Part shown: positions 41,259-52,853 of the stretch, piece after piece
Layout: each line of letters opens with the position of its first letter
Position numbering within the stretch: position 1 is the first letter of the stretch
Source of the DNA: an uncultured Coriobacteriaceae bacterium
GTDB taxonomy: Bacteria > Actinomycetota > Coriobacteriia > Coriobacteriales > Coriobacteriaceae
Assembly: GCA_944322305.1 (NCBI GenBank)
Contig: CALUOP010000010.1
Coordinates: 1-64,000, forward strand
DNA length: 64,000 nt
Direction of reading: 5' to 3'
Position numbers and translations under genes: made by a program
The notes under the pieces: model-generated
What the model was told of the DNA's origin: nothing
The model's input: the letters and a program-made list of their open reading frames with translations, nothing else
Databases searched by the model: none

Positions 41259-41781
41259 GCAGGCCAGGGCGGCAGCCGAGACGCGCGGGCGCTGCGCCTG
41301 CGCATGTTCTGCGACGCCGTCCGTCCGCTGTGCCGCCCATAACTGTTGCGCTTATTAACTTTCAGCTATGGTTTCAAGGGCCGCCATGGCGCGCTGTGCG
41401 GCGCCGTGCGAGAAGCACGTGAAAGATGCATAACAAAATAGTTAATACTGATTGCTTCGCACATTTCGTTTATCAGGTATTTTGTTTCCACGGCCGGAAA
41501 ACAGTTGCCGTTCACAGGTAAAAACATACCGTTCACAGGTAATTACAGAATAGTTGATACCATTAACGGATAACGGTCGACCGTTCACCGGCAAATCTCC
41601 CCAAACAAACTAGTTAATAGTAATAATTATTTCAGCAAGACCCAAGAAAGCGAATTACGCAGACGCGGCGCGGGCTTTAAGAGCTCAACCTCAGAGAACG
41701 CAAGCAAAAGCGTCTGCGTGCTCGCCTCCTGGGAAGAGGTTGCGCGGCACGTGTCACGCCGCGCGGAAAGGAAGGCAAGAC
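41259..41781. other. AT-rich control region upstream of the PTS operon
   Basis: More than 400 bases of distinctly AT-rich non-coding DNA (about 41340-41660) with ordered direct repeats and a palindrome. Long leaders of this kind normally carry several regulator sites. No gene is seen. Confidence 0.6.
41353..41619 (+). promoter_or_regulatory. Repeated operator-like sites of the PTS operon
   Basis: CCGTTCACAGGTAA occurs at 41508-41521 and 41529-41542 (21 bases apart, two helical turns) and as CCGTTCACCGGCAA at 41581-41594. AACGGTCGACCGTT at 41572-41585 is a perfect palindrome overlapping the third site. A second family, TAGTTAATA, occurs near 41439, 41551 (one change) and 41611, and inverted near 41353-41361. 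Two regulators are therefore likely. Confidence 0.55.
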
Positions 41782-42213
41782 ATGCGGTATCTGGTGCTGG
41801 TAAGCCACGGAACGCTCGCCCAAGGCGTGCACAGCGTGCTGAAGATGCTCGCGGGGGAGAACCCTCGCATCCTCAGCGCGAGCCTCGAGGACGGCATGAG
41901 CGCCGAGCAGTTCGTCGAGCGTTTCCGCGAGACCGTCTCGGTCGTCGGCGCGGACGACGAGGTGCTGCTCCTCGGCGACATCGTGGGCGGCTCGCCCCTC
42001 ACCAACGCGGCCAACGTGCTGCAGGAGCGCGGGCTTCTCGCCCACGCGGCGGTGCTGGGCGGCGTGAACCTGCCCATGGCCATGACGGCTGCGATGCAGC
42101 TTGACGGAGCGGATCTCGCCGACGTCGCCAACACCCTCGTCAGCGAGGCACGCGACGGCGTGCGCATCCTCGAGTTCGCCCCGGCGGGCGACGAGGATGA
42201 GGAAGACCTCTAA
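41782..42213 (+). CDS. PTS mannose-family IIA component
   Basis: A protein of 143 residues; the ATG at 41782 has GGAAAGGAAGG upstream. The N-terminus RYLVLVSHGTLAQG carries the phosphorylated His9 in the VSHG motif. DDEVLLLGDIVGGSPLTNAA and GGVNLPMAMTA match the IIA-Man fold. It receives phosphate from HPr and passes it to the IIB protein. It is encoded as a separate protein rather than fused to IIB. The sugar of this system is not determined by sequence; mannose-family systems carry mannose, fructose, sorbose or amino sugars. The C-terminus is very acidic. Confidence 0.9.
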   Translation: MRYLVLVSHGTLAQGVHSVLKMLAGENPRILSASLEDGMSAEQFVERFRETVSVVGADDEVLLLGDIVGGSPLTNAANVLQERGLLAHAAVLGGVNLPMAMTAAMQLDGADLADVANTLVSEARDGVRILEFAPAGDEDEEDL

Positions 42214-42222
42214 CGGTTGCAC

Positions 42223-42270
42223 GCGCCGGCGGCCTGACACAGCCATTTGCCTCCCGCAAGCCGCCGGCGC
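42223..42270 (+). promoter_or_regulatory. Hairpin between PTS IIA and IIB
   Basis: GCGCCGGCGGC (42223-42233) pairs exactly with 42260-42270 around a 26-base loop, just after the IIA stop. With no T-run it is more likely an mRNA-stability or processing hairpin than a terminator. Confidence 0.5.
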
Positions 42271-42339
42271 TTGCGCATATTCAGCGGGAGCTCCAAGCAT
42301 GCAACGCGCCGTGCGGGCGCACAAGGGAAAGGAAACGCA

Positions 42340-42834
42340 ATGATCAGCTTCGTACGTATCGACGACCGCATGATCCACGGCCAGACGGTTACCCGCTGGG
42401 CGGTTGAGTGGCCCTGCGACGGCATCATCGCCGTCAACGACGCCGCGGCCACCAACCCGGTGCTCAAGAGCGCCTACAAGAGCGCCGCGCCGGAGAAGAA
42501 GACCTTCGTGTGGACCAAGGAGCACTTCAAGGAGAAGGCCGACACGGTGCTCGCCAGCAAGAGCCGCTACTTCCTCATCACCAAGAACCCGCTGGACATG
42601 CGTGAGATCCTGGTTGACTTCGGCTTCGTGCCGAGCGACGTCAAGACCGTCGTGGTGGGCCCCTGCAACGACCGTCCCGGCGCCGTCAAGCTCGGCAACA
42701 ACCAGTCCATCACCCAAGAGGAGGCCCGGGCGATCGAGGACATCGCCAAGGCCGGCTACACGGTCGACTTCCGCCTGCTGCCCGACAAGGGTATCGGCAC
42801 GTGGGACAAGTTCCGCGGGCAGTTCGGCTTCTAA
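42340..42834 (+). CDS. PTS mannose-family IIB component
   Basis: A protein of 164 residues; the ATG at 42340 follows AAAGGAAACGC. The start MISFVRIDDRMIHGQTVTRW contains the phosphorylated His13 in the D-R-x-I-H-G-Q motif. The rest (NPLDMREILVDFGFV, VVVGPCNDRPGAVKLGNNQSIT, DFRLLPDKGIGTW) fits the IIB-Man alpha/beta fold. It passes phosphate from IIA to the sugar as it enters through IIC/IID. GC-rich hairpins lie both before and after this gene. Confidence 0.92.
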   Translation: MISFVRIDDRMIHGQTVTRWAVEWPCDGIIAVNDAAATNPVLKSAYKSAAPEKKTFVWTKEHFKEKADTVLASKSRYFLITKNPLDMREILVDFGFVPSDVKTVVVGPCNDRPGAVKLGNNQSITQEEARAIEDIAKAGYTVDFRLLPDKGIGTWDKFRGQFGF

Positions 42835-42854
42835 CCTCTACCAGTTTGGTTTCC

Positions 42855-42900
42855 CTCGCCCGGCGCCGCTGCCGAGCGCGCAGGCGCGTCGCCGGGCGAG
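42855..42900 (+). promoter_or_regulatory. Hairpin between PTS IIB and IIC
   Basis: CTCGCCCGGCG (42855-42865) and its exact complement (42890-42900) form an 11-bp stem 20 bases after the IIB stop. A GAGAAGAACA motif overlaps its end. Confidence 0.55.
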
Positions 42901-42957
42901 AAGAACAGTTGCATGCGCCCTGAACGGCAGGGCACGGCTTGTTGAAAGGTGGTTCGT

Positions 42958-43818
42958 ATGACAGTCAACGTTTTCCAGGCGGCGCTGCTCGGCCTGTTCG
43001 CCTGCCTGGCGTCTATGCCTGGCATGGGCGGCACGTCGCTCGGCAACTACACGCTCGGGCGCCCGCTCGTCGCCGGCCTCGTGGTGGGCCTCATCTTGGG
43101 CGACGTCACCCTCGGCATCATCGTGGGCATGGCCATCCAGGTGGTCTACATCGCGCTGGTGACCCCGGGCGGAACCGTTTCCGCCGACGTCCGCGCGGCC
43201 TGCTACATCGGCATCCCGCTCTCCATGATGGCGATCAACGCCCAGGGCCTCGACCCGTCGAGCGCCGACGCCGCTGCGCTCGCCACCACGCTCGGCGCCA
43301 CCTGCGGCACCATCGGCGCCATCCTCTTCTACGGCACCGCCACCATCAACCTGGTGTGGCAGAGCATCGGCTGGAAGGCGCTCGAGAAGGGTGAGACCCA
43401 CAAGCTCTACCTGGTCGACATGGTGCTGCCGTGGATCTCTCACATCATCTGCTCCTTCATCCCCACGTTCGTGATCGTGTACTTCGGCCAGGGTATGGTG
43501 GACATCATCATGAACGCCCTGCCCATGGACGGCCTGCCCATGAAGACGCTCTTCGCTGTCGGCTCGCTGCTTCCCTGCGTCGGTATCGCCATCCTGCTCA
43601 AGCAGGTTATCGCCAAGCCCACCGACTTCCTGACGTTCTTCTTCGGTTTCACCCTCGCCGCCGTCATGGGCTGCAACCTCATTGCCTGCTCGGCCATCGC
43701 CTGCTTCTTCGCGCTGATCAACTTCCAGATCTCCACGATGAAGTCCAAGCTCGACCGCGTGGGCACCGCCGGCGCGCTTAACGCCGCAGATGACGATGAA
43801 GACGAGGAGGACATCTAA
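42958..43818 (+). CDS. PTS mannose-family IIC component
   Basis: A protein of 286 residues; the ATG at 42958 follows AAAGGTGG. It is a polytopic membrane protein with about six to eight segments. The opening VFQAALLGLFACLASMPGMGG, then LGRPLVAGLVVGLILGDVTLGIIVGMAIQVVYIALVTPGG, is the IIC-Man signature, with the conserved P-G-G loop. Together with IID it forms the sugar channel. The acidic C-terminus (DDDEDEEDI) is likely cytoplasmic. IID follows after two bases. Confidence 0.93.
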   Translation: MTVNVFQAALLGLFACLASMPGMGGTSLGNYTLGRPLVAGLVVGLILGDVTLGIIVGMAIQVVYIALVTPGGTVSADVRAACYIGIPLSMMAINAQGLDPSSADAAALATTLGATCGTIGAILFYGTATINLVWQSIGWKALEKGETHKLYLVDMVLPWISHIICSFIPTFVIVYFGQGMVDIIMNALPMDGLPMKTLFAVGSLLPCVGIAILLKQVIAKPTDFLTFFFGFTLAAVMGCNLIACSAIACFFALINFQISTMKSKLDRVGTAGALNAADDDEDEEDI

Positions 43819-43820
43819 TC

Positions 43821-44657
43821 ATGGCTGAGTACAGCAAGAAAGTATCCAAGAAGGCTCTGGCCAAATCCTTCCGCAACTGGTATTACGGCAACCTGACCTG
43901 CTTCTCGCAGGAGCACATGCAGACCTTCGGCTACCTGGTCTCCATGCTCCCCATCGTGGAGGACCTCTACGAGAAGAAGGACGACCAGACCAAGGCGCTG
44001 CAGACCTACTCGGCGTTCTTCAACACCGAGCCCCAGATCGGCTCCATGATCGTGGGTGTCACGGTGGGCCTCGAGGAGGCGCGCGCCAACGGCGAGGCCA
44101 TTGACGACGAGACCATCAACGGCATCCGCGCCGGCCTCATGGGCCCGCTCGCCGGCATCGGCGACTCGCTTATCGTCGGCACGCTCATCCCGATTCTGCT
44201 CGGCATCGCCATGGGGCTTTCCGAGGGCGGCTCGGTTCTGGGCCCGATCTTCTACATCGTGGTGTGGAACCTGCTCGCGTACTTCGGCATGCGCTTCGCC
44301 TACTTCCGCGGCTACGACCTGGGCGGTGCGGCGGTTGAGGCCCTGGTCGGCCCCAACGCCACGGCGCTGCGCGACGCCATCGTGATGGTGGGCACCATGG
44401 TCATCGGCGCGGTTGCGGCCACCTGGGTGTCCATCTCCACGGCGCTCACGCTGCCGGGCGGCGGCACCCTGCAGGGCACGCTTGACGGCATCTACCCCAA
44501 GCTCCTGCCGCTCATCTTCACGATCTTCTGCTGGTGGCTCATGGCCAAGAAGAAGGTCAGCCCCATCGTCACCATGCTGATCCTGTTGGTCATCGCCTTC
44601 ATCGGCGCCGCCGTTGGCTTCTTCGGCGCCGCCACCATCGCCGCTCCCACGGCGTAG
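43821..44657 (+). CDS. PTS mannose-family IID component
   Basis: A protein of 278 residues. SKKALAKSFRNWYYGNLTCFSQEHMQTFGYLVSMLPIV at the N-terminus, FFNTEPQIGSMIVGVTVGLEEARANG in the middle, and AGLMGPLAGIGDSLIVGTLIPILLGIA are family signatures of IID-Man. Several membrane segments are at the C-terminus. It completes the IIA-IIB-IIC-IID set, so the operon should encode a working transporter. A 13-bp perfect hairpin follows. Confidence 0.94.
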   Translation: MAEYSKKVSKKALAKSFRNWYYGNLTCFSQEHMQTFGYLVSMLPIVEDLYEKKDDQTKALQTYSAFFNTEPQIGSMIVGVTVGLEEARANGEAIDDETINGIRAGLMGPLAGIGDSLIVGTLIPILLGIAMGLSEGGSVLGPIFYIVVWNLLAYFGMRFAYFRGYDLGGAAVEALVGPNATALRDAIVMVGTMVIGAVAATWVSISTALTLPGGGTLQGTLDGIYPKLLPLIFTIFCWWLMAKKKVSPIVTMLILLVIAFIGAAVGFFGAATIAAPTA

Positions 44658-44706: not shown

Positions 44707-44833
44707 CGCCCGGCGGCGTGCAGCTTAGGTGCGTCGCGCGGCGCCGGGAAAGCGCTTGGGCCATGCGTTTGCGCGCATGCCGCCCGGCGCGGTACGGTCA
44801 GGGTTGGTCGCACCCCACCCCAAGGAGGAACCC

Positions 44834-45196
44834 ATGCTCAAGCCCATCGACACCACCAACTGGACGCGCGACGACCTCGTGCGGGAAGCGCGCATGCAAT
44901 CCGGCGCCCTCGCGCACCTGGGTACGTGGAAGCGTCTGGCGTACTCGCTGGTTGCCCTGGGTTTCGTACTGGGCCTGTGGGGTGCCAACGCCGGTGCGGC
45001 GCCGGCCGTGGCAGCCGCGGTGGTCTGCCTGGTGGCGGGCGTGCCGGCGTCCGTTGCGCTCACGGTGGGCGTTGCCCGCGGCAAGCGCAACGTCGAGGCC
45101 ATGCTCACCGCGGCCGGGGTGGACGTGCAGGAGCTGCTGCGGCCGCGCGGCAAGGGCACCGGCGCGGGGTCGTCGTCGGGGCGCGACCACGCGTGA
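44834..45196 (+). CDS. Small two-helix membrane protein, function unknown
   Basis: A protein of 120 residues; the ATG at 44834 follows AAGGAGGAACCC. A soluble helix (residues 8-35, NWTRDDLVREARMQSGALAH) is followed by two membrane helices, LAYSLVALGFVLGLWGANAG and AAVVCLVAGVPASVALTVGV, and a cytoplasmic tail (KRNVEAMLTAAGVDVQELLRPRGKGTGAGSSSG). No known domain is recognised. It lies between the PTS operon and the HAD phosphatase on the same strand and could belong to the same transcript. Two large perfect hairpins come directly after it. Confidence 0.6.
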   Translation: MLKPIDTTNWTRDDLVREARMQSGALAHLGTWKRLAYSLVALGFVLGLWGANAGAAPAVAAAVVCLVAGVPASVALTVGVARGKRNVEAMLTAAGVDVQELLRPRGKGTGAGSSSGRDHA

Positions 45197-45361: not shown

Positions 45362-46192
45362 GTGGAAGAGGTAAACGGCAAGCGGATTCGCATCGTATTC
45401 ACCGACGTGGACGGCACGCTGCTCGACGCGGAGCACCGGGTGATCCCCGAGGCGTGCGCCACCGTGCAGGGCTTGGCCCGGCTGGGCATTCCTTTGGTGT
45501 TGGTGTCGGCGCGCATGCCCGAGGGCCTCACCACCATTCAGCGCGCGATGGGGTTTTCCGGCCCGCTGGTGTGCTATAGCGGCGCGTACGTGCTGGACGA
45601 GCAGGGTCGCAAGCTCCTGAGCCGCCCCATCGACATCGACACCGCCTGCGAGATCAAGCGCTTCTTGGACCGCGAGCTGCCCGGGCTCACCTGCTCGGCG
45701 TACGGCTACCACACCTGGATCTGCGACGACGACCGGGATCCGCGCATCCAAAACGAGGAGCGCATCACCACCCTCAAGGCCGAGACCGCGCGCCTGCGCG
45801 ACGCGTTCAGCCAGGTGGGCATCCATAAGTTCCTGCTCATGGGCGAGCCTGCGGAGATCGAGGCGGCCGAGAAGCGCGTGGCGCAGGCCTATCCGCAGCT
45901 GGCGGTCGTGCGCTCCTCGCCCATCCTCTGCGAGATCATGAGCGGCAAGGCGTCCAAGGCCGAGGGCGTGCAGGTTGTGTGCCGGCACTTTGGCGTGGAC
46001 CCGTCCGAGGCTGTGGCGTTTGGCGACGGGCGCAACGACATCGACATGCTCGCCGCCGTGCCCGAAAGCTACGCGATGGCCAACGCCCCGGACGAGGTCA
46101 AGCAGGCCGCCGCGCATGTAACGCGCTTCTCCAACGCCGAGAACGGGCTGGCGCGCACGCTCGAGGAGCTGCTGCCCGAGCTGAGGGCGTAA
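45362..46192 (+). CDS. HAD-superfamily phosphatase, Cof/YidA type
   Basis: A protein of 276 residues; the GTG at 45362 follows AAAGGAAGGGGG. The catalytic motif is RIVFTDVDGTLLDAEHRV, motif II is LVLVSARMPEG, and motif III/IV is GKASKAEGVQVV plus VAFGDGRNDIDMLAAV. The cap inserted at about 90-190 is the C2B type of the Cof family, which removes phosphate from sugar phosphates and similar small molecules. Its position after a PTS operon would suit relief of sugar-phosphate load; that is inference. Confidence 0.9.
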   Translation: MEEVNGKRIRIVFTDVDGTLLDAEHRVIPEACATVQGLARLGIPLVLVSARMPEGLTTIQRAMGFSGPLVCYSGAYVLDEQGRKLLSRPIDIDTACEIKRFLDRELPGLTCSAYGYHTWICDDDRDPRIQNEERITTLKAETARLRDAFSQVGIHKFLLMGEPAEIEAAEKRVAQAYPQLAVVRSSPILCEIMSGKASKAEGVQVVCRHFGVDPSEAVAFGDGRNDIDMLAAVPESYAMANAPDEVKQAAAHVTRFSNAENGLARTLEELLPELRA

Positions 46193-46292: not shown

Positions 46293-48641
46293 CTAGAAGC
46301 GCGCGACGCTTTGCAGGGTCAGCGCTCCGTTGCGGTGGGCGAAGGTGTAGAGCATGCCGTTGGCGGGCTGGGGGATCTCGCCCTCGTGCGGGACCACGTT
46401 GGTCAGGGCGCGGGCAACGTCGGGGTCGCACACGGCCAGCACGCTGCGGCCCTCGGCGTCGTTGAGGCGGCGGACAAGCGCGCCCAGCACGCTGGCGCCC
46501 TGGTCCAAGCTGCGGCCCGTGTCGAGCGCATCCACGCAATCATAGTCGTAGTCAAACCGTGCAAGCTCGAGCATGGCGTCTTTGAGCGTCTCGATGGCCT
46601 GCGGGGTCGGCGCGCACACGCAGGCGCTTACCTGGGCGTTTGCGAATCGCAGCGCGTGACCCAGCGCGTGGGCCTGGTTCATGCCGTAACCATTGAGGGC
46701 GCCGGTGCACCACGTTTGGATGCGGGCCGATGTGTCTGCGGGCCCTTCGGCGCTGGTGGCCAGGTACAGCAGCTGGGCTTCGGACTCGGATCCCTGCTCA
46801 GGCTCGGGCTGCGTGGCAGCTTCAGGCTCGGCGGGGGCGTCTGCGGCGGCCTCGGTTGCTTCTGCTTCGACGGGTGCGCAAGAGGCTGGGCCCGCCGCCT
46901 CGGCGCGCGCGGCGCCGGCATCCGCCGTCACGCTCTCAGCCTCGGTGTTCTCGGCCGTATCGGCAGCTTCGGTATCGCTCGCTGCCGCCGTGTCCTCGCA
47001 CCCGGGGCGCACCCATCCGGCGGGCACCTCGCGCAGCCACACCACCGAAAGCGGCGGCACCTCCAAGCTGCCGGAAAGCTGCCGCGCCGCCGCGCCTGCG
47101 GGCCCCTCGGCCAGCATGTCCTCGAACCAGCAGTTCAGCGTGCCGTCGTAGAAGGTGTGCGGCGCGTCATCGGCGTTCACGGCTACCAGCACGCGCTCGC
47201 GCGGGTGCTCGCCGTCGGCCTCGGCCACGCGCTCGAACAGCAGCTGCTTGTTCTGGATGTTCACGTTGTGGTAGTCGCCGTAGGCCAGCGCGCGCGAGTC
47301 GGCGCGCACCTCGGCCAGGCGCGCCACAAGCGCGGTCAGCGCGTCCGGGCCGTTTGCCATGAGCTCGCCCAGGTCCAGGTGGGCGATCTCGCTCGACAGG
47401 GCGCCCAGGGGCGCATGGGGATCAGTTGCCCCCGCGTGGCGCGCAATCTGATGCTTTTCTTCCACCAAAGCAGAGCGCGCCGGCGCGTCGAGGGCGGGGC
47501 GCAGCTGCATGTCGGCGTCGTGGCCCTGGCCCTTCTGGCCGGTCTGGCCCCACTCGCTGCCGTAGTACAGGCACGGGATCCCCGGCATGCCGAAGAGCAG
47601 GCCGTAGGCGGGCACCAGGTGGCGCTTGTTGGTGAGGATGCTGGCCAGGCGCGTCACGTCGTGGTTGTCCGAGAAGGCCAGCAGGTGCTTGCCGCGGTAG
47701 AGGCACCACTGCTCGGGGCCGAACTGGCGGTTGAGCGAGTGGGCGATCTCGAACAGGTTCATGCTGTTGAAGCTGGAGTACAGGCCCTTGTAGCACTCGT
47801 AGTTGGTGCAGGAGTGCAGCATCTCGTCGTTCATGATCTGGTTGTAGTCGCCGTGGAGCGTCTCACCCAGCAGGAAGAACGTGCGGTCGGTGAGCAGCGC
47901 CTCGGCCTCAACCAGGTCGTGCGCGGGTGCGCCTTTGCGGGCGCGCTCCTCGGCGCGGGCCACGGCCTCCTGCGTGACGGCGGGAGCCGGCTCGGCCGAA
48001 AGCTCGTTGGCGAGCGCGCGCAGGCGGCGCAGGAAGTCGTGGTCAAGGCTGTAGGCCACGTCTAGGCGCAGGCCGTCAACGCCCAGCTCGCGCCGCCACA
48101 TGCGCACGGAGTCCAGCAGGTAGTCAACCACGGCGGGGTTCTTGAGGTTGAGCTTCACCAGGTCCTGGTTGCCCTCCCAGCCCTCGTACCAAAAGCCGTC
48201 GCCAAAGTGCGTGTCGCCGTCGAAGTTTATGTTGAACCAGTCTTTGTAGGGGCTGTCCCACTTCTTCTCGCGCACGTCGCGGAACGCCCAGAAGTCGCGG
48301 CCCACGTGGTTGAACACGGCGTCCAGAAGGATGCGCACGCCGTGGGCGTGAAGCTCGCGCACGATCTCGACGAAGTCCTCGTTGGTGCCCAGGCGGCAGT
48401 CGATGCGGCGCAGGTCGCGCGTGTCGTAGCCGTGCCAGGTAGAGGAGAACACCGGGTTCAAGATGATGGAGCCGATGCCGAGCTCGCGCAGGTACGGGGC
48501 CCAGCCAGCCAGCTTGGAGAGGCGGTGGCGGGAGGCCTCGGCCTCTTCGGCGGCGGTGTCGCCCACGGCCGGGGCGTAGGTGGGCGCTCCCACAAGGCCC
48601 AGGGGGTAGAACTGGTAGAACGTGCTTTCGTAAGCCCACAT
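46293..48641 (-). CDS. GH13 alpha-glucosidase-type enzyme with inactive phosphoglycerate-mutase-like tail
   Basis: A protein of 782 residues. Residues 1-540 are a GH13 (alpha-amylase family) enzyme: YQFYPLGLVGAP at the start, LLDAVFNHVGRDFWAF (region I), GVDGLRLDVAYSLD with the nucleophile Asp near 190 (region II), LLGETLHGDY with the acid Glu near 258 (region III), and FSDNHDVTR with Asp near 323 (region IV). Residues 540-620 are an Ala/Glu/Thr-rich linker. Residues 622-782 look like a histidine phosphatase (phosphoglycerate mutase fold): LLYLATSAEG, ARIQTWCTGALNGYGMNQAHALG and SVLAVCDPDVARAL correspond to the usual RHGET, QGW...LTExGxxQAxxLG and VVSHG positions, but both catalytic histidines are lost. 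There is no signal peptide, so it acts in the cytoplasm on maltose-type or related sugars. Confidence 0.8.
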   Translation of the reverse strand: MWAYESTFYQFYPLGLVGAPTYAPAVGDTAAEEAEASRHRLSKLAGWAPYLRELGIGSIILNPVFSSTWHGYDTRDLRRIDCRLGTNEDFVEIVRELHAHGVRILLDAVFNHVGRDFWAFRDVREKKWDSPYKDWFNINFDGDTHFGDGFWYEGWEGNQDLVKLNLKNPAVVDYLLDSVRMWRRELGVDGLRLDVAYSLDHDFLRRLRALANELSAEPAPAVTQEAVARAEERARKGAPAHDLVEAEALLTDRTFFLLGETLHGDYNQIMNDEMLHSCTNYECYKGLYSSFNSMNLFEIAHSLNRQFGPEQWCLYRGKHLLAFSDNHDVTRLASILTNKRHLVPAYGLLFGMPGIPCLYYGSEWGQTGQKGQGHDADMQLRPALDAPARSALVEEKHQIARHAGATDPHAPLGALSSEIAHLDLGELMANGPDALTALVARLAEVRADSRALAYGDYHNVNIQNKQLLFERVAEADGEHPRERVLVAVNADDAPHTFYDGTLNCWFEDMLAEGPAGAAARQLSGSLEVPPLSVVWLREVPAGWVRPGCEDTAAASDTEAADTAENTEAESVTADAGAARAEAAGPASCAPVEAEATEAAADAPAEPEAATQPEPEQGSESEAQLLYLATSAEGPADTSARIQTWCTGALNGYGMNQAHALGHALRFANAQVSACVCAPTPQAIETLKDAMLELARFDYDYDCVDALDTGRSLDQGASVLGALVRRLNDAEGRSVLAVCDPDVARALTNVVPHEGEIPQPANGMLYTFAHRNGALTLQSVARF

Positions 48642-51158: not shown

Positions 51159-52853
51159 ATGGCTTACGACACCAAGACATGGCGCTGCGGCGCGTACGAG
51201 CTCACGTTTGATCGCCCGCGCATCATGGGTATCTTAAACGTCACGCCCGACTCGTTCTCCGACGGCGGCGAGCACTTGGACACCAAGGCCGCCATCGCGG
51301 CGGGCCTGGCCATGCTCGACGCCGGCGCCGACATCATCGACGTGGGCGGCGAGTCCACTCGCCCTGGCTTCACGCCCGTCAACCCCGACGTGGAGGCCGA
51401 GCGCGTGATCCCGGTGGTGCGCGAGCTGGTGAAGCACGGCGCCATCGTCTCGATCGACACGCGCAACGTGGAGGTTGCCAAGGCCTGCGTGCGCCTGGGC
51501 GCCTCCATCGTGAACGACGTCACCGGCTTCACCGACCCCGAGATGGTGGAGTTCGTCTCGGGCGAGACCTGCAACAACTGCGGGCTTATCGTGGTGCACT
51601 CCGGCGGCGTAGCCGAGCCGCGCCGGGCGCACACCGCCGTGACGCTGGACACCTCGGCTGCGGCGCTTGCGGCCGAGCGCGCTGCCGCCGCCGAGCGCGC
51701 CAAGCAGGCCGCCCCCGGCAAGCGCGGGCCCCTGAGCTTCCTGCAGGGCCAGCTCTTCGACGAGCCCAACGGTTCCGCTGCCGCCCGCGCGGCCGAGAAG
51801 GCCCAGGCCGCCAAGACGGCCGGGAAGCCCGCGGGGCCTGCGGGCGCCTCTGCCGGCGGCACCGCCTCCAAGCCGGCTGCGGACGCTGCTTCTTCTGCCG
51901 CCACCTCGGGCGACAAGCTCGCCGCGCTGATGAACGCCACGCCCATGAGCCCTGCCTCGCTCAGGCGCTTCACCCTGCCGGACTCCGGCCCCATCATGCG
52001 CCGCGTCATGGGCTTTCTCTCCGACCAGGCGCGCACGCTCACGCGCGCCGGCGTGCGCCCCGAGCGCATCTGCCTGGACCCGGGCGCCGGCTTCGGCAAG
52101 ACGGCCGAGGAGGACATCGTGATCCAGCGCTCCACTGCCAAGATGGCCTCGCTGGGTTACCCGCTCATGTGCGCGGTTTCGCGTAAGCGCTTCGTGGGCA
52201 CCGTTTCGGGCATCGCCGAGGCGCGCGAGCGCGACGCTGCAACGTTCGGCGTGTGCCTTGCCGCGCTCGAGCAGGGTGCCAACATCGTGCGCGTGCACAA
52301 CGCGGCCGGGTTCGCGGAGTTTCTCGCCGGCTACTGGTCGGTGGCGCACGAGCAGCCGCGCCGCGCGTTTGTCGCCCTGGGATCCAACATGGGCGACCGC
52401 CTGCAGAACATCCGCACCGCGCGCGACCTTATCGCCCAGATCCCGCTTACCTGCGTGACGCATTGCTCGCGCATCTACGAGAGCGAGCCGGCTTACGAGC
52501 TCGACCAGCAGGCGTTTGCCAACGCCGCGATCGAGATCAAGACCGAGCTTGCGCCCACGGTTCTGCTCGACGAGATCATGAAGGTGGAGCAGGAGGTGGG
52601 CCGCGTGCGCGAGGGCGCCAAGCCCAACGGTCCGCGCGTGATCGACTGCGACCTGCTGTGGATGGAGGGCGAGGTGCACGGGGGCAACAAGCTTCGCCTG
52701 CCGCACCCCAAGCTGGGCGAGCGCGACTTCGTGCTCATCCCGCTGGAGGACATCGTGCACGACCCGGCGCGCTTTTTGCGCTTCGAGGGCGTGGACGTGC
52801 TTCCGCCCGAAGAGCGCGTGGGCCACGTGGTGGGCGAGCTCGGCAGCCTCTAG
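51159..52853 (+). CDS. Dihydropteroate synthase fused to HPPK (FolP-FolK)
   Basis: A protein of 564 residues joining two consecutive folate enzymes. Residues 1-395 are dihydropteroate synthase: RIMGILNVTPDSFSDGGEH, DIIDVGGESTRPG, IVSIDTRNVEVAKA, IVNDVTGF, LDPGAGFGKTAEED and CAVSRKRFVGTVSG. The barrel is interrupted at about 150-265 by an Ala/Lys-rich insertion. Residues 401-564 are HPPK: FVALGSNMGDRLQNIRTA, RIYESEPAYELDQQAFANAAIEI, GPRVIDCDLLW and LPHPKLGERDFVLIPLEDI. Fusion allows 6-hydroxymethyl-dihydropterin diphosphate to pass to the next step. The more common bacterial fusion is FolB-FolK, and here folB and folE are not adjacent. Confidence 0.92.
   Translation: MAYDTKTWRCGAYELTFDRPRIMGILNVTPDSFSDGGEHLDTKAAIAAGLAMLDAGADIIDVGGESTRPGFTPVNPDVEAERVIPVVRELVKHGAIVSIDTRNVEVAKACVRLGASIVNDVTGFTDPEMVEFVSGETCNNCGLIVVHSGGVAEPRRAHTAVTLDTSAAALAAERAAAAERAKQAAPGKRGPLSFLQGQLFDEPNGSAAARAAEKAQAAKTAGKPAGPAGASAGGTASKPAADAASSAATSGDKLAALMNATPMSPASLRRFTLPDSGPIMRRVMGFLSDQARTLTRAGVRPERICLDPGAGFGKTAEEDIVIQRSTAKMASLGYPLMCAVSRKRFVGTVSGIAEARERDAATFGVCLAALEQGANIVRVHNAAGFAEFLAGYWSVAHEQPRRAFVALGSNMGDRLQNIRTARDLIAQIPLTCVTHCSRIYESEPAYELDQQAFANAAIEIKTELAPTVLLDEIMKVEQEVGRVREGAKPNGPRVIDCDLLWMEGEVHGGNKLRLPHPKLGERDFVLIPLEDIVHDPARFLRFEGVDVLPPEERVGHVVGELGSL

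What the first reader, a model, noticed from the sequence alone, without database searches (positions are those of the whole stretch)
46293..48641. GH13 enzyme fused to a phosphatase-like domain that has lost its catalytic histidines
Residues 622-782 follow the layout of the phosphoglycerate-mutase fold (strand, QxW loop, LxxxGxxQAxxLG helix, late strand) but read ATS for RHG and CDP for SHG. A pseudo-enzyme may serve as a sugar-phosphate sensor for the attached glucosidase.
Basis: partly seen in the sequence, partly recalled or inferred. Interest (0 to 1): 0.55.

Follow-up and report, generated by a model that had tools for sequence, protein, structure and literature searches.

The report
Sugar-cleaving enzyme carrying a dead phosphatase
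A relative of the gut bacterium Collinsella makes a starch-type sugar-cleaving enzyme with a phosphatase domain fused to its tail that has lost its active site but seems to keep its fold, while two sister species still carry the intact version, giving a natural before-and-after pair for studying how enzymes turn into non-enzymes.

Summary
The 782-aa minus-strand protein is a GH13 hydrolase with its catalytic Asp/Glu/Asp, an 81-residue Ala/Glu/Pro-rich linker, and a domain homologous to branch-1 histidine phosphatases. The homology is weak in the window alone (Pfam E 0.014). Relatives settle it: all four genomes held of the genus carry the fusion. Two have an intact phosphatase (Pfam E 5e-29 and 4e-30; dN/dS 0.07 between them). 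The window and one sister share the inactive form: Arg and His of RHG replaced, second His replaced, and the stretch with the acid Glu deleted. A model built on 12 sequences (pLDDT 85) matches phosphatase PhoE (Z 20). The dead domain evolves fast (dN/dS 0.68), but keeps its hydrophobic core and codon structure far beyond neutral simulations, and an open frame that 0-6.5% of neutral runs keep. It is a real pseudo-phosphatase, most simply inactivated once after fusion. The phosphosugar-sensor idea lacks direct support: most residues that normally hold phosphate are gone. A non-catalytic accessory role (precedent: mycobacterial MutT1) or slow decay are the main readings. Five searches of the held library showed no report of this fusion. 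New variant of a known kind; moderate interest.

The parts
47022..48641 (-). GH13 alpha-amylase-family domain, residues 1-540, with a probable C-terminal beta domain (PF16657 only at E 0.17)
   Evidence: PF00128 E 4.7e-45; catalytic Asp194 (48060-48062), Glu260 (47862-47864) and Asp328 (47658-47660) align with the motifs of PDB 7d9b; dN/dS 0.18 against the sister copy
46779..47021 (-). Ala/Glu/Pro-rich linker, residues 541-621, probably disordered
   Evidence: 26 of 81 residues Ala, 15 Glu, 7 Pro; poorly conserved and gapped between the four fusions
46296..46778 (-). degenerate histidine-phosphatase (PGM-fold) domain, residues 622-782
   Evidence: homology; fold; constraint
46752..46760 (-). 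ATS (residues 628-630) where intact copies read MRH of the RHG motif
   Evidence: alignments; position
46599..46601 (-). Gln681 at the place of the second pocket Arg (the sister copy in G003 keeps Arg)
   Evidence: alignment; position worked out
46521..46532 (-). DALD (residues 704-707), flanking the shared deletion of about 30 residues that held the acid Glu
   Evidence: alignment; position
46422..46430 (-). CDP (residues 738-740) where intact copies read GHS/GHN
   Evidence: alignment; position

Best explanation
Shown by sequence: four congeneric Coriobacteriaceae genomes carry one GH13 hydrolase with a C-terminal histidine-phosphatase domain on a long low-complexity linker; the domain is intact in two and lacks its catalytic residues in the other two. 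Simplest history (inferred): one fusion in the ancestor with an active phosphatase, then one inactivation before the window's species and G003 split (same deletion, same Ser and Asp at the two His positions), while GH13 kept its catalytic residues. Well supported: the dead domain is still coding and still selected for a PGM-type hydrophobic core, although constraint is weak overall. Inferred: the protein works as an alpha-glucan/maltodextrin-type hydrolase, probably inside the cell, and the dead domain is a non-catalytic accessory (partner docking, assembly or stability) tethered by the linker, as the histidine-phosphatase domain of mycobacterial MutT1 helps its Nudix domain act on a partner protein without using its own catalytic His.
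For: Fusion in 4 of 4 genus genomes held, with ExoIII, Sir2 and FolP-FolK homologues alongside in all four. Intact site in G001 and G002: PF00300 E 5.1e-29 and 4.4e-30, R/H/R/E/H of the G001 domain aligned with PhoE, dN/dS 0.066. Shared losses and deletion in G000 and G003. hhalign 98.5%, E 3.6e-15. Model pLDDT 85.0, pTM 0.84; PhoE Z 20.0, rmsd 2.4 over 156. Frame: neutral simulation leaves both frames open in 0-6.5% of 200 runs in each of 12 settings. Core: 31 of 38 hydrophobic columns kept in both dead copies against 15.9 +- 2.8, maximum 23, in 60 re-aligned neutral runs. GC3-GC2 contrast 0.38 and 0.42 against 0.15-0.18 simulated. MutT1 precedent: PMC11784022, abstract, passages and section 8.
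Against: dN/dS of the dead domain is 0.68 (95% bootstrap 0.44-1.00), so constraint is weak, and the identity of the two dead copies (46% over 159 codons) is what neutral simulation gives (58-70 of 300 runs reach it). Only two dead sequences exist. The structure used an alignment with 11 intact phage phosphatases, which leans towards that fold; the single-sequence model of the whole protein was worthless (pLDDT 34.9). Nothing here bears directly on the accessory role. The fused domains form one group only weakly in the tree (58/78; 60% of bootstrap trees).
Confidence: 0.6

Rival explanations
1. Vestige in slow decay: the phosphatase became dispensable (perhaps because another phosphatase, such as the neighbouring HAD enzyme, took over), and the tail persists only because a misfolded or truncated C-terminus would harm the attached GH13 enzyme.
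For: dN/dS is 0.066 in the intact pair and 0.68 in the dead pair; identity at the neutral level; dN of the dead domain is about 5 to 8 times that of GH13 and of four neighbouring genes; the close orthologue of the neighbouring HAD phosphatase (88%) is found only in the two species with the dead domain, the other two having only 33-35% relatives. This is one contrast on the tree, not a test.
Against: Hydrophobic core and codon-position structure kept beyond neutral simulations in both lineages, and frames open where 0-6.5% of neutral runs keep both.
Confidence: 0.25
2. Phosphosugar sensor: the dead domain binds sugar phosphates and controls GH13 activity.
For: Fold probably kept next to a sugar-cleaving domain; a mannose-family PTS and a Cof-type HAD gene lie next door in the window and on the same side in G003, the two species with the dead domain; in G001/G002 the PTS IIC lies on another contig.
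Against: The usual phosphate ligands are replaced (Arg to Thr, His to Ser, Arg to Gln, His to Asp) or deleted in the window copy. The PTS/HAD genes are on the opposite strand, and in G003 a 1266-aa ORF lies between HAD and the fusion.
Confidence: 0.1
3. New chemistry: Asp739 and other new residues form a different active site.
For: D-P-D is shared by both dead copies at the place of the second His.
Against: No conserved set of polar residues can be defined from two sequences; fast evolution is unusual for an enzyme site.
Confidence: 0.04
4. The C-terminal part is not a phosphatase relative at all.
For: Sub-threshold Pfam match in the window.
Confidence: 0.01

Closest known systems
Histidine phosphatase superfamily branch 1; Bacillus stearothermophilus PhoE (PDB 1h2e, 1ebb)
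   Same: Fold of the model over 156 residues (Z 20.0, rmsd 2.4); sequence relationship of the intact fused domain (E 2e-11)
   Different: Window copy lacks both catalytic His, both pocket Arg and the acid-bearing stretch; fused to GH13
Mycobacterial MutT1 (Nudix domain plus C-terminal histidine-phosphatase domain; PDB 5gg5, 5xd3; PMC11784022)
   Same: Unrelated N-terminal hydrolase with a C-terminal domain of the same fold (Z about 19). The paper reports that mutating the His of that domain does not stop the phosphatase activities tested, and that adding the domain to E. coli MutT lets it act on the partner protein NDK
   Different: MutT1 keeps the RHG motif; its partner domain is Nudix, not GH13; here the motif is gone
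GH13 (neo)pullulanase / alpha-glycosidase group (PDB 2z1k, 7d9b)
   Same: Barrel motifs and, in the 7d9b alignment, the catalytic Asp/Glu/Asp; unfused orthologues in other genera of the family, many with frames of about 460-530 aa
   Different: Linker and phosphatase-fold domain seen only in this genus among the sets searched
Phosphatase pseudoenzymes, e.g. PTPRU (PMC7320164, search listing with start of abstract only)
   Same: Phosphatase-fold domain without activity, kept inside a larger protein
   Different: Protein tyrosine phosphatase fold (recalled), human receptor; here intact fused counterparts sit in the same genus

Membership tests
GH13 alpha-amylase family | Catalytic domain matched by PF00128 above its cut-off | tested here: met
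   155.1 bits against a cut-off of 22
GH13 alpha-amylase family | Catalytic Asp nucleophile, Glu acid/base, third Asp | tested here: met
   Asp194, Glu260, Asp328 align with 7d9b motifs and are invariant in the four fusions; their roles are recalled
GH13 neopullulanase/cyclomaltodextrinase group | Substrate specificity or subfamily assignment | tested here: inconclusive
   Best named models score far under their cut-offs (144.6 of 568, 143.4 of 540)
Histidine phosphatase superfamily, branch 1 (as a homologue) | Phosphoglycerate-mutase fold and sequence relationship | tested here: met
   sequence; predicted fold
Histidine phosphatase superfamily, branch 1 (as an enzyme) | RHG motif with nucleophile His | tested here: not met
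   reads Thr629-Ser630
Histidine phosphatase superfamily, branch 1 (as an enzyme) | Second catalytic His | tested here: not met
   Asp739
Histidine phosphatase superfamily, branch 1 (as an enzyme) | Second pocket Arg and acid Glu | tested here: not met
   Gln681; Glu stretch deleted
Pseudoenzyme | Catalytic residues lost from an ancestrally active domain | tested here: met
   intact residues in the same fusion in G001 and G002 and in standalone relatives; activity itself not measured
Pseudoenzyme | Fold and reading frame kept by selection | tested here: met
   with weak overall constraint
Pseudoenzyme | No catalytic activity | not testable with these tools
   needs an assay
Phosphosugar sensor domain | Binds phosphosugars and changes enzyme activity | not testable with these tools
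   usual phosphate ligands absent

The most novel reading that the evidence does not exclude
The dead phosphatase domain has been re-purposed as a folded non-catalytic module that the attached GH13 enzyme needs (partner docking, assembly or control), so one genus holds both an active two-enzyme fusion and its pseudoenzyme descendant; the lost phosphatase step may have passed to the HAD phosphatase gene that sits beside the fusion only in the species with the dead domain.
Probability: 0.35. Interest if true: 0.6.

Novelty: new variant of a known kind. Interest (0 to 1): 0.42.

Why it matters
Pseudoenzymes are common, but a set in which the same fused domain is intact in two species and dead in two others of one genus, with the partner enzyme's active site unchanged, allows a direct test of what an enzyme domain does once catalysis is gone. 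It also shows that annotation from one genome misses such a domain: the window copy is below Pfam's cut-off and is recognised only through its congeners.

Tried and rejected
Single-sequence AlphaFold2 of the whole protein gave no usable model (pLDDT 34.9). A scan of viral contigs with the phosphatase alignment confirmed no relative. Six of seven DNA-pattern scans gave loci, one none. They hold 23 frames with a phosphatase match; I put 11 of these 23 into the structure alignment, leaving out near-copies, fragments and some others.

Neighbouring-gene origin of the fusion: no histidine phosphatase frame lies in the stretches held (4 to 18 kb) around the GH13 gene in any of 80 named loci (the model finds 42 of 42 of its own sequences).

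PTS/HAD link: these genes lie beside the fusion in G000 and G003. In G001/G002 none was found within the 4.1-4.8 kb held on that side; their PTS IIC (92% identical) lies on another contig, and they have only 33-35% HAD relatives.

Fusion elsewhere: in the family search 51 of 61 genomes outside the genus have a GH13 match at 1e-60; the only frame of 620 aa or more (G101) is long by upstream read-through. In the class search 90 genomes outside the genus match (39 of them, by my count); all seven frames of 620 aa or more, plus two shorter, were read and none holds the phosphatase.

Literature: five searches showed no report of a GH13-histidine-phosphatase fusion or of its inactivation; one search gave nothing relevant. 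I judged by titles and abstract starts; only open-licence papers are held.

Limits of the tests: one 100-base gap was counted twice in the intergenic G+C; one search repeats it (0.707 over 823 bases); nothing else used the wrong figure. The simulations start from the intact G001 domain, not a reconstructed ancestor, and use assumed mutation settings. Identical sequences were put into the tree once.

Full report
What is there. The ORF at 46293-48641, minus strand, encodes 782 aa. Residues 1-540 are a GH13 domain (PF00128, E 4.7e-45) with Asp194, Glu260 and Asp328 at the catalytic places of PDB 7d9b (roles recalled). It starts directly at the barrel (MWAYESTFYQFYPLG); I see no signal-like N-terminus, but no signal predictor was run. 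Residues 541-621 are an Ala/Glu/Pro-rich linker. Residues 622-782 are the domain in question. The genus is unnamed.

Is the C-terminal domain a phosphatase relative? In the window alone the signal is weak: His_Phos_1 at E 0.014, below Pfam's cut-off. Searching 98 genomes with the domain gave matches in 14, the window's own included: a 48%-identical copy in G003, copies in G001 and G002, and standalone histidine phosphatases. Reading these shows that all four genomes held of the genus have the same GH13-linker-phosphatase fusion (782, 830, 804, 804 aa). In G001 and G002 the domain reads RHAET and GHS/GHN and scores PF00300 at E 5.1e-29 and 4.4e-30; the best PDB relatives of the G001 domain are the PhoE entries 1ebb/1h2e (E 2e-11), with Arg, His, Arg, Glu, His aligned (that these are the catalytic residues is recalled). 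The alignment of the four puts Thr629-Ser630 opposite Arg-His, Gln681 opposite the second Arg, Asp739 opposite the second His, and a gap of about 30 residues where the acid Glu lies. G003 has Ala-Ser, Arg kept, Asp, and the same gap. Profile comparison of the two degenerate copies with four standalone intact ones gives 98.5% and E 3.6e-15 over 149 columns.

Fold. AlphaFold2 of residues 618-782 with 11 phage phosphatases gives pLDDT 85.0 and pTM 0.84. The 50 Foldseek rows shown are mostly phosphoglycerate mutases, histidine phosphatases and proteins holding such a domain, as far as their titles tell. VIA-align puts PhoE first (Z 20.0, rmsd 2.4, 156 aligned), followed among others by TIGAR, SixA and the C-terminal part of mycobacterial MutT1. 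Caveat: the supporting alignment itself consists of intact phosphatases, so part of the confidence is borrowed; without it the full-length model was unusable.

One fusion, one inactivation. ExoIII, Sir2 and FolP-FolK homologues lie beside the fusion in all four genomes (ExoIII and Sir2 are arranged differently in G001/G002). Outside the genus GH13 orthologues are unfused as far as seen: 51 family genomes and 90 class genomes (39 of them shared), judged by frame length and by reading every frame of 620 aa or more, and 80 of 80 named loci from Collinsella, Enorma, Lachnospiraceae, Oscillospiraceae and others. The tree groups the four fused domains with weak support (58/78; 60% of bootstrap trees); the dead pair is on a very long branch. 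The shared deletion and shared Ser and Asp replacements make a single inactivation before the G000/G003 split the simplest reading.

Decaying or maintained? Nei-Gojobori estimates: dead pair G000-G003, GH13 0.177 (0.12-0.24), phosphatase domain 0.677 (0.44-1.00); intact pair G001-G002, phosphatase domain 0.066 (0.02-0.13); between a dead and an intact copy 0.97 (G000-G001) and 1.28 (G003-G001). Four neighbouring genes between G000 and G003 give 0.14-0.19, and a short hypothetical gene 0.44. Against pure decay: under neutral evolution both frames stayed open in 0-6.5% of 200 runs in each of 12 settings. With stops forbidden, simulated copies kept hydrophobic residues in both copies at 15-17 of 38 core columns on average, while 31 are kept in reality; no run of 300 in any of four settings reached this, nor did any of 60 runs re-aligned as the real sequences were (maximum 23). 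The G+C contrast of codon positions 3 and 2 is 0.38 and 0.42 against 0.15-0.18 (0 of 300 in each setting). The simulated copies were less diverged from the intact domain than the real ones, which makes the core test conservative. Result against: identity of the dead pair (46% over 159 codons) is at the neutral level (58-70 of 300 runs reach it). The fair statement is fast evolution under fold-level constraint. Codon-position contrast could partly reflect general codon bias of any translated gene.

Function. The most likely reading is a maltodextrin-type GH13 hydrolase with a tethered, catalytically dead domain used non-catalytically. The precedent is mycobacterial MutT1 (PMC11784022; I read abstract, outline, 11 passages and section 8): mutating the His of its histidine-phosphatase domain left the tested phosphatase activities, while grafting that domain onto E. 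coli MutT let the chimera act on the partner protein NDK. What the domain does here is inference. The sensor idea lacks its main premise, a kept phosphate pocket. In its favour, and for a replacement idea, the mannose-type PTS and the HAD phosphatase gene sit beside the fusion in G000 and G003, whereas G001/G002 have their PTS IIC on another contig and only 33-35% HAD relatives; this is a single contrast on the tree. G000 has four matches to the intact-domain query at E 1e-5; the one read, on contig C2, has an intact RHGET and SHS, so the cell has not lost this enzyme class.

Novelty. Five searches of the held library showed no report of a GH13-histidine-phosphatase fusion or its inactivation (open-licence papers only). 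Pseudoenzyme domains and phosphatase-fold fusions are known kinds; the combination and the intact/dead contrast inside one genus are the new part.

Noticed in passing
window 51159-52853 +: FolP-FolK fusion (Pterin_bind plus HPPK) whose dihydropteroate synthase part is matched in two stretches, with an Ala/Lys/Gly-rich insert (by eye) in it; homologues of similar length in G001-G003.
   Followed up: partly
window 41740-44657 +, 45362-46192 +: Mannose-family PTS IIA-IIB-IIC-IID and a Cof-type HAD phosphatase, convergent with the fusion gene. The close HAD orthologue is found only in the two genus genomes with the dead domain.
   Followed up: partly
L207, L211, L208 (family f5 genomes G062, G091, G243): GH13 orthologues there end in another tail..MDFFLGKEKPYEEMTVQELQLSVLAQMAMRGEVT.., alike in three genomes of two genera (g10, g66): another, unrelated C-terminal add-on to the same enzyme.
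   Followed up: no
L051 1699-5499 +: In G003 a 1266-aa ORF that resembles a surface fructan hydrolase (by eye) lies between the HAD gene and the fusion; G001 has surface-protein-like and sortase-like ORFs (by eye) at that end instead.
   Followed up: no
L209 4308-5000 +: In one family f5 genome (G234) a separate histidine phosphatase frame lies about 0.8 kb from the GH13 frame, on the other strand (E 1.5e-23).
   Followed up: no
window 44729-45196 +: Short hypothetical gene without Pfam match that evolves fast (dN/dS 0.44, dS 0.84) between G000 and G003.
   Followed up: no
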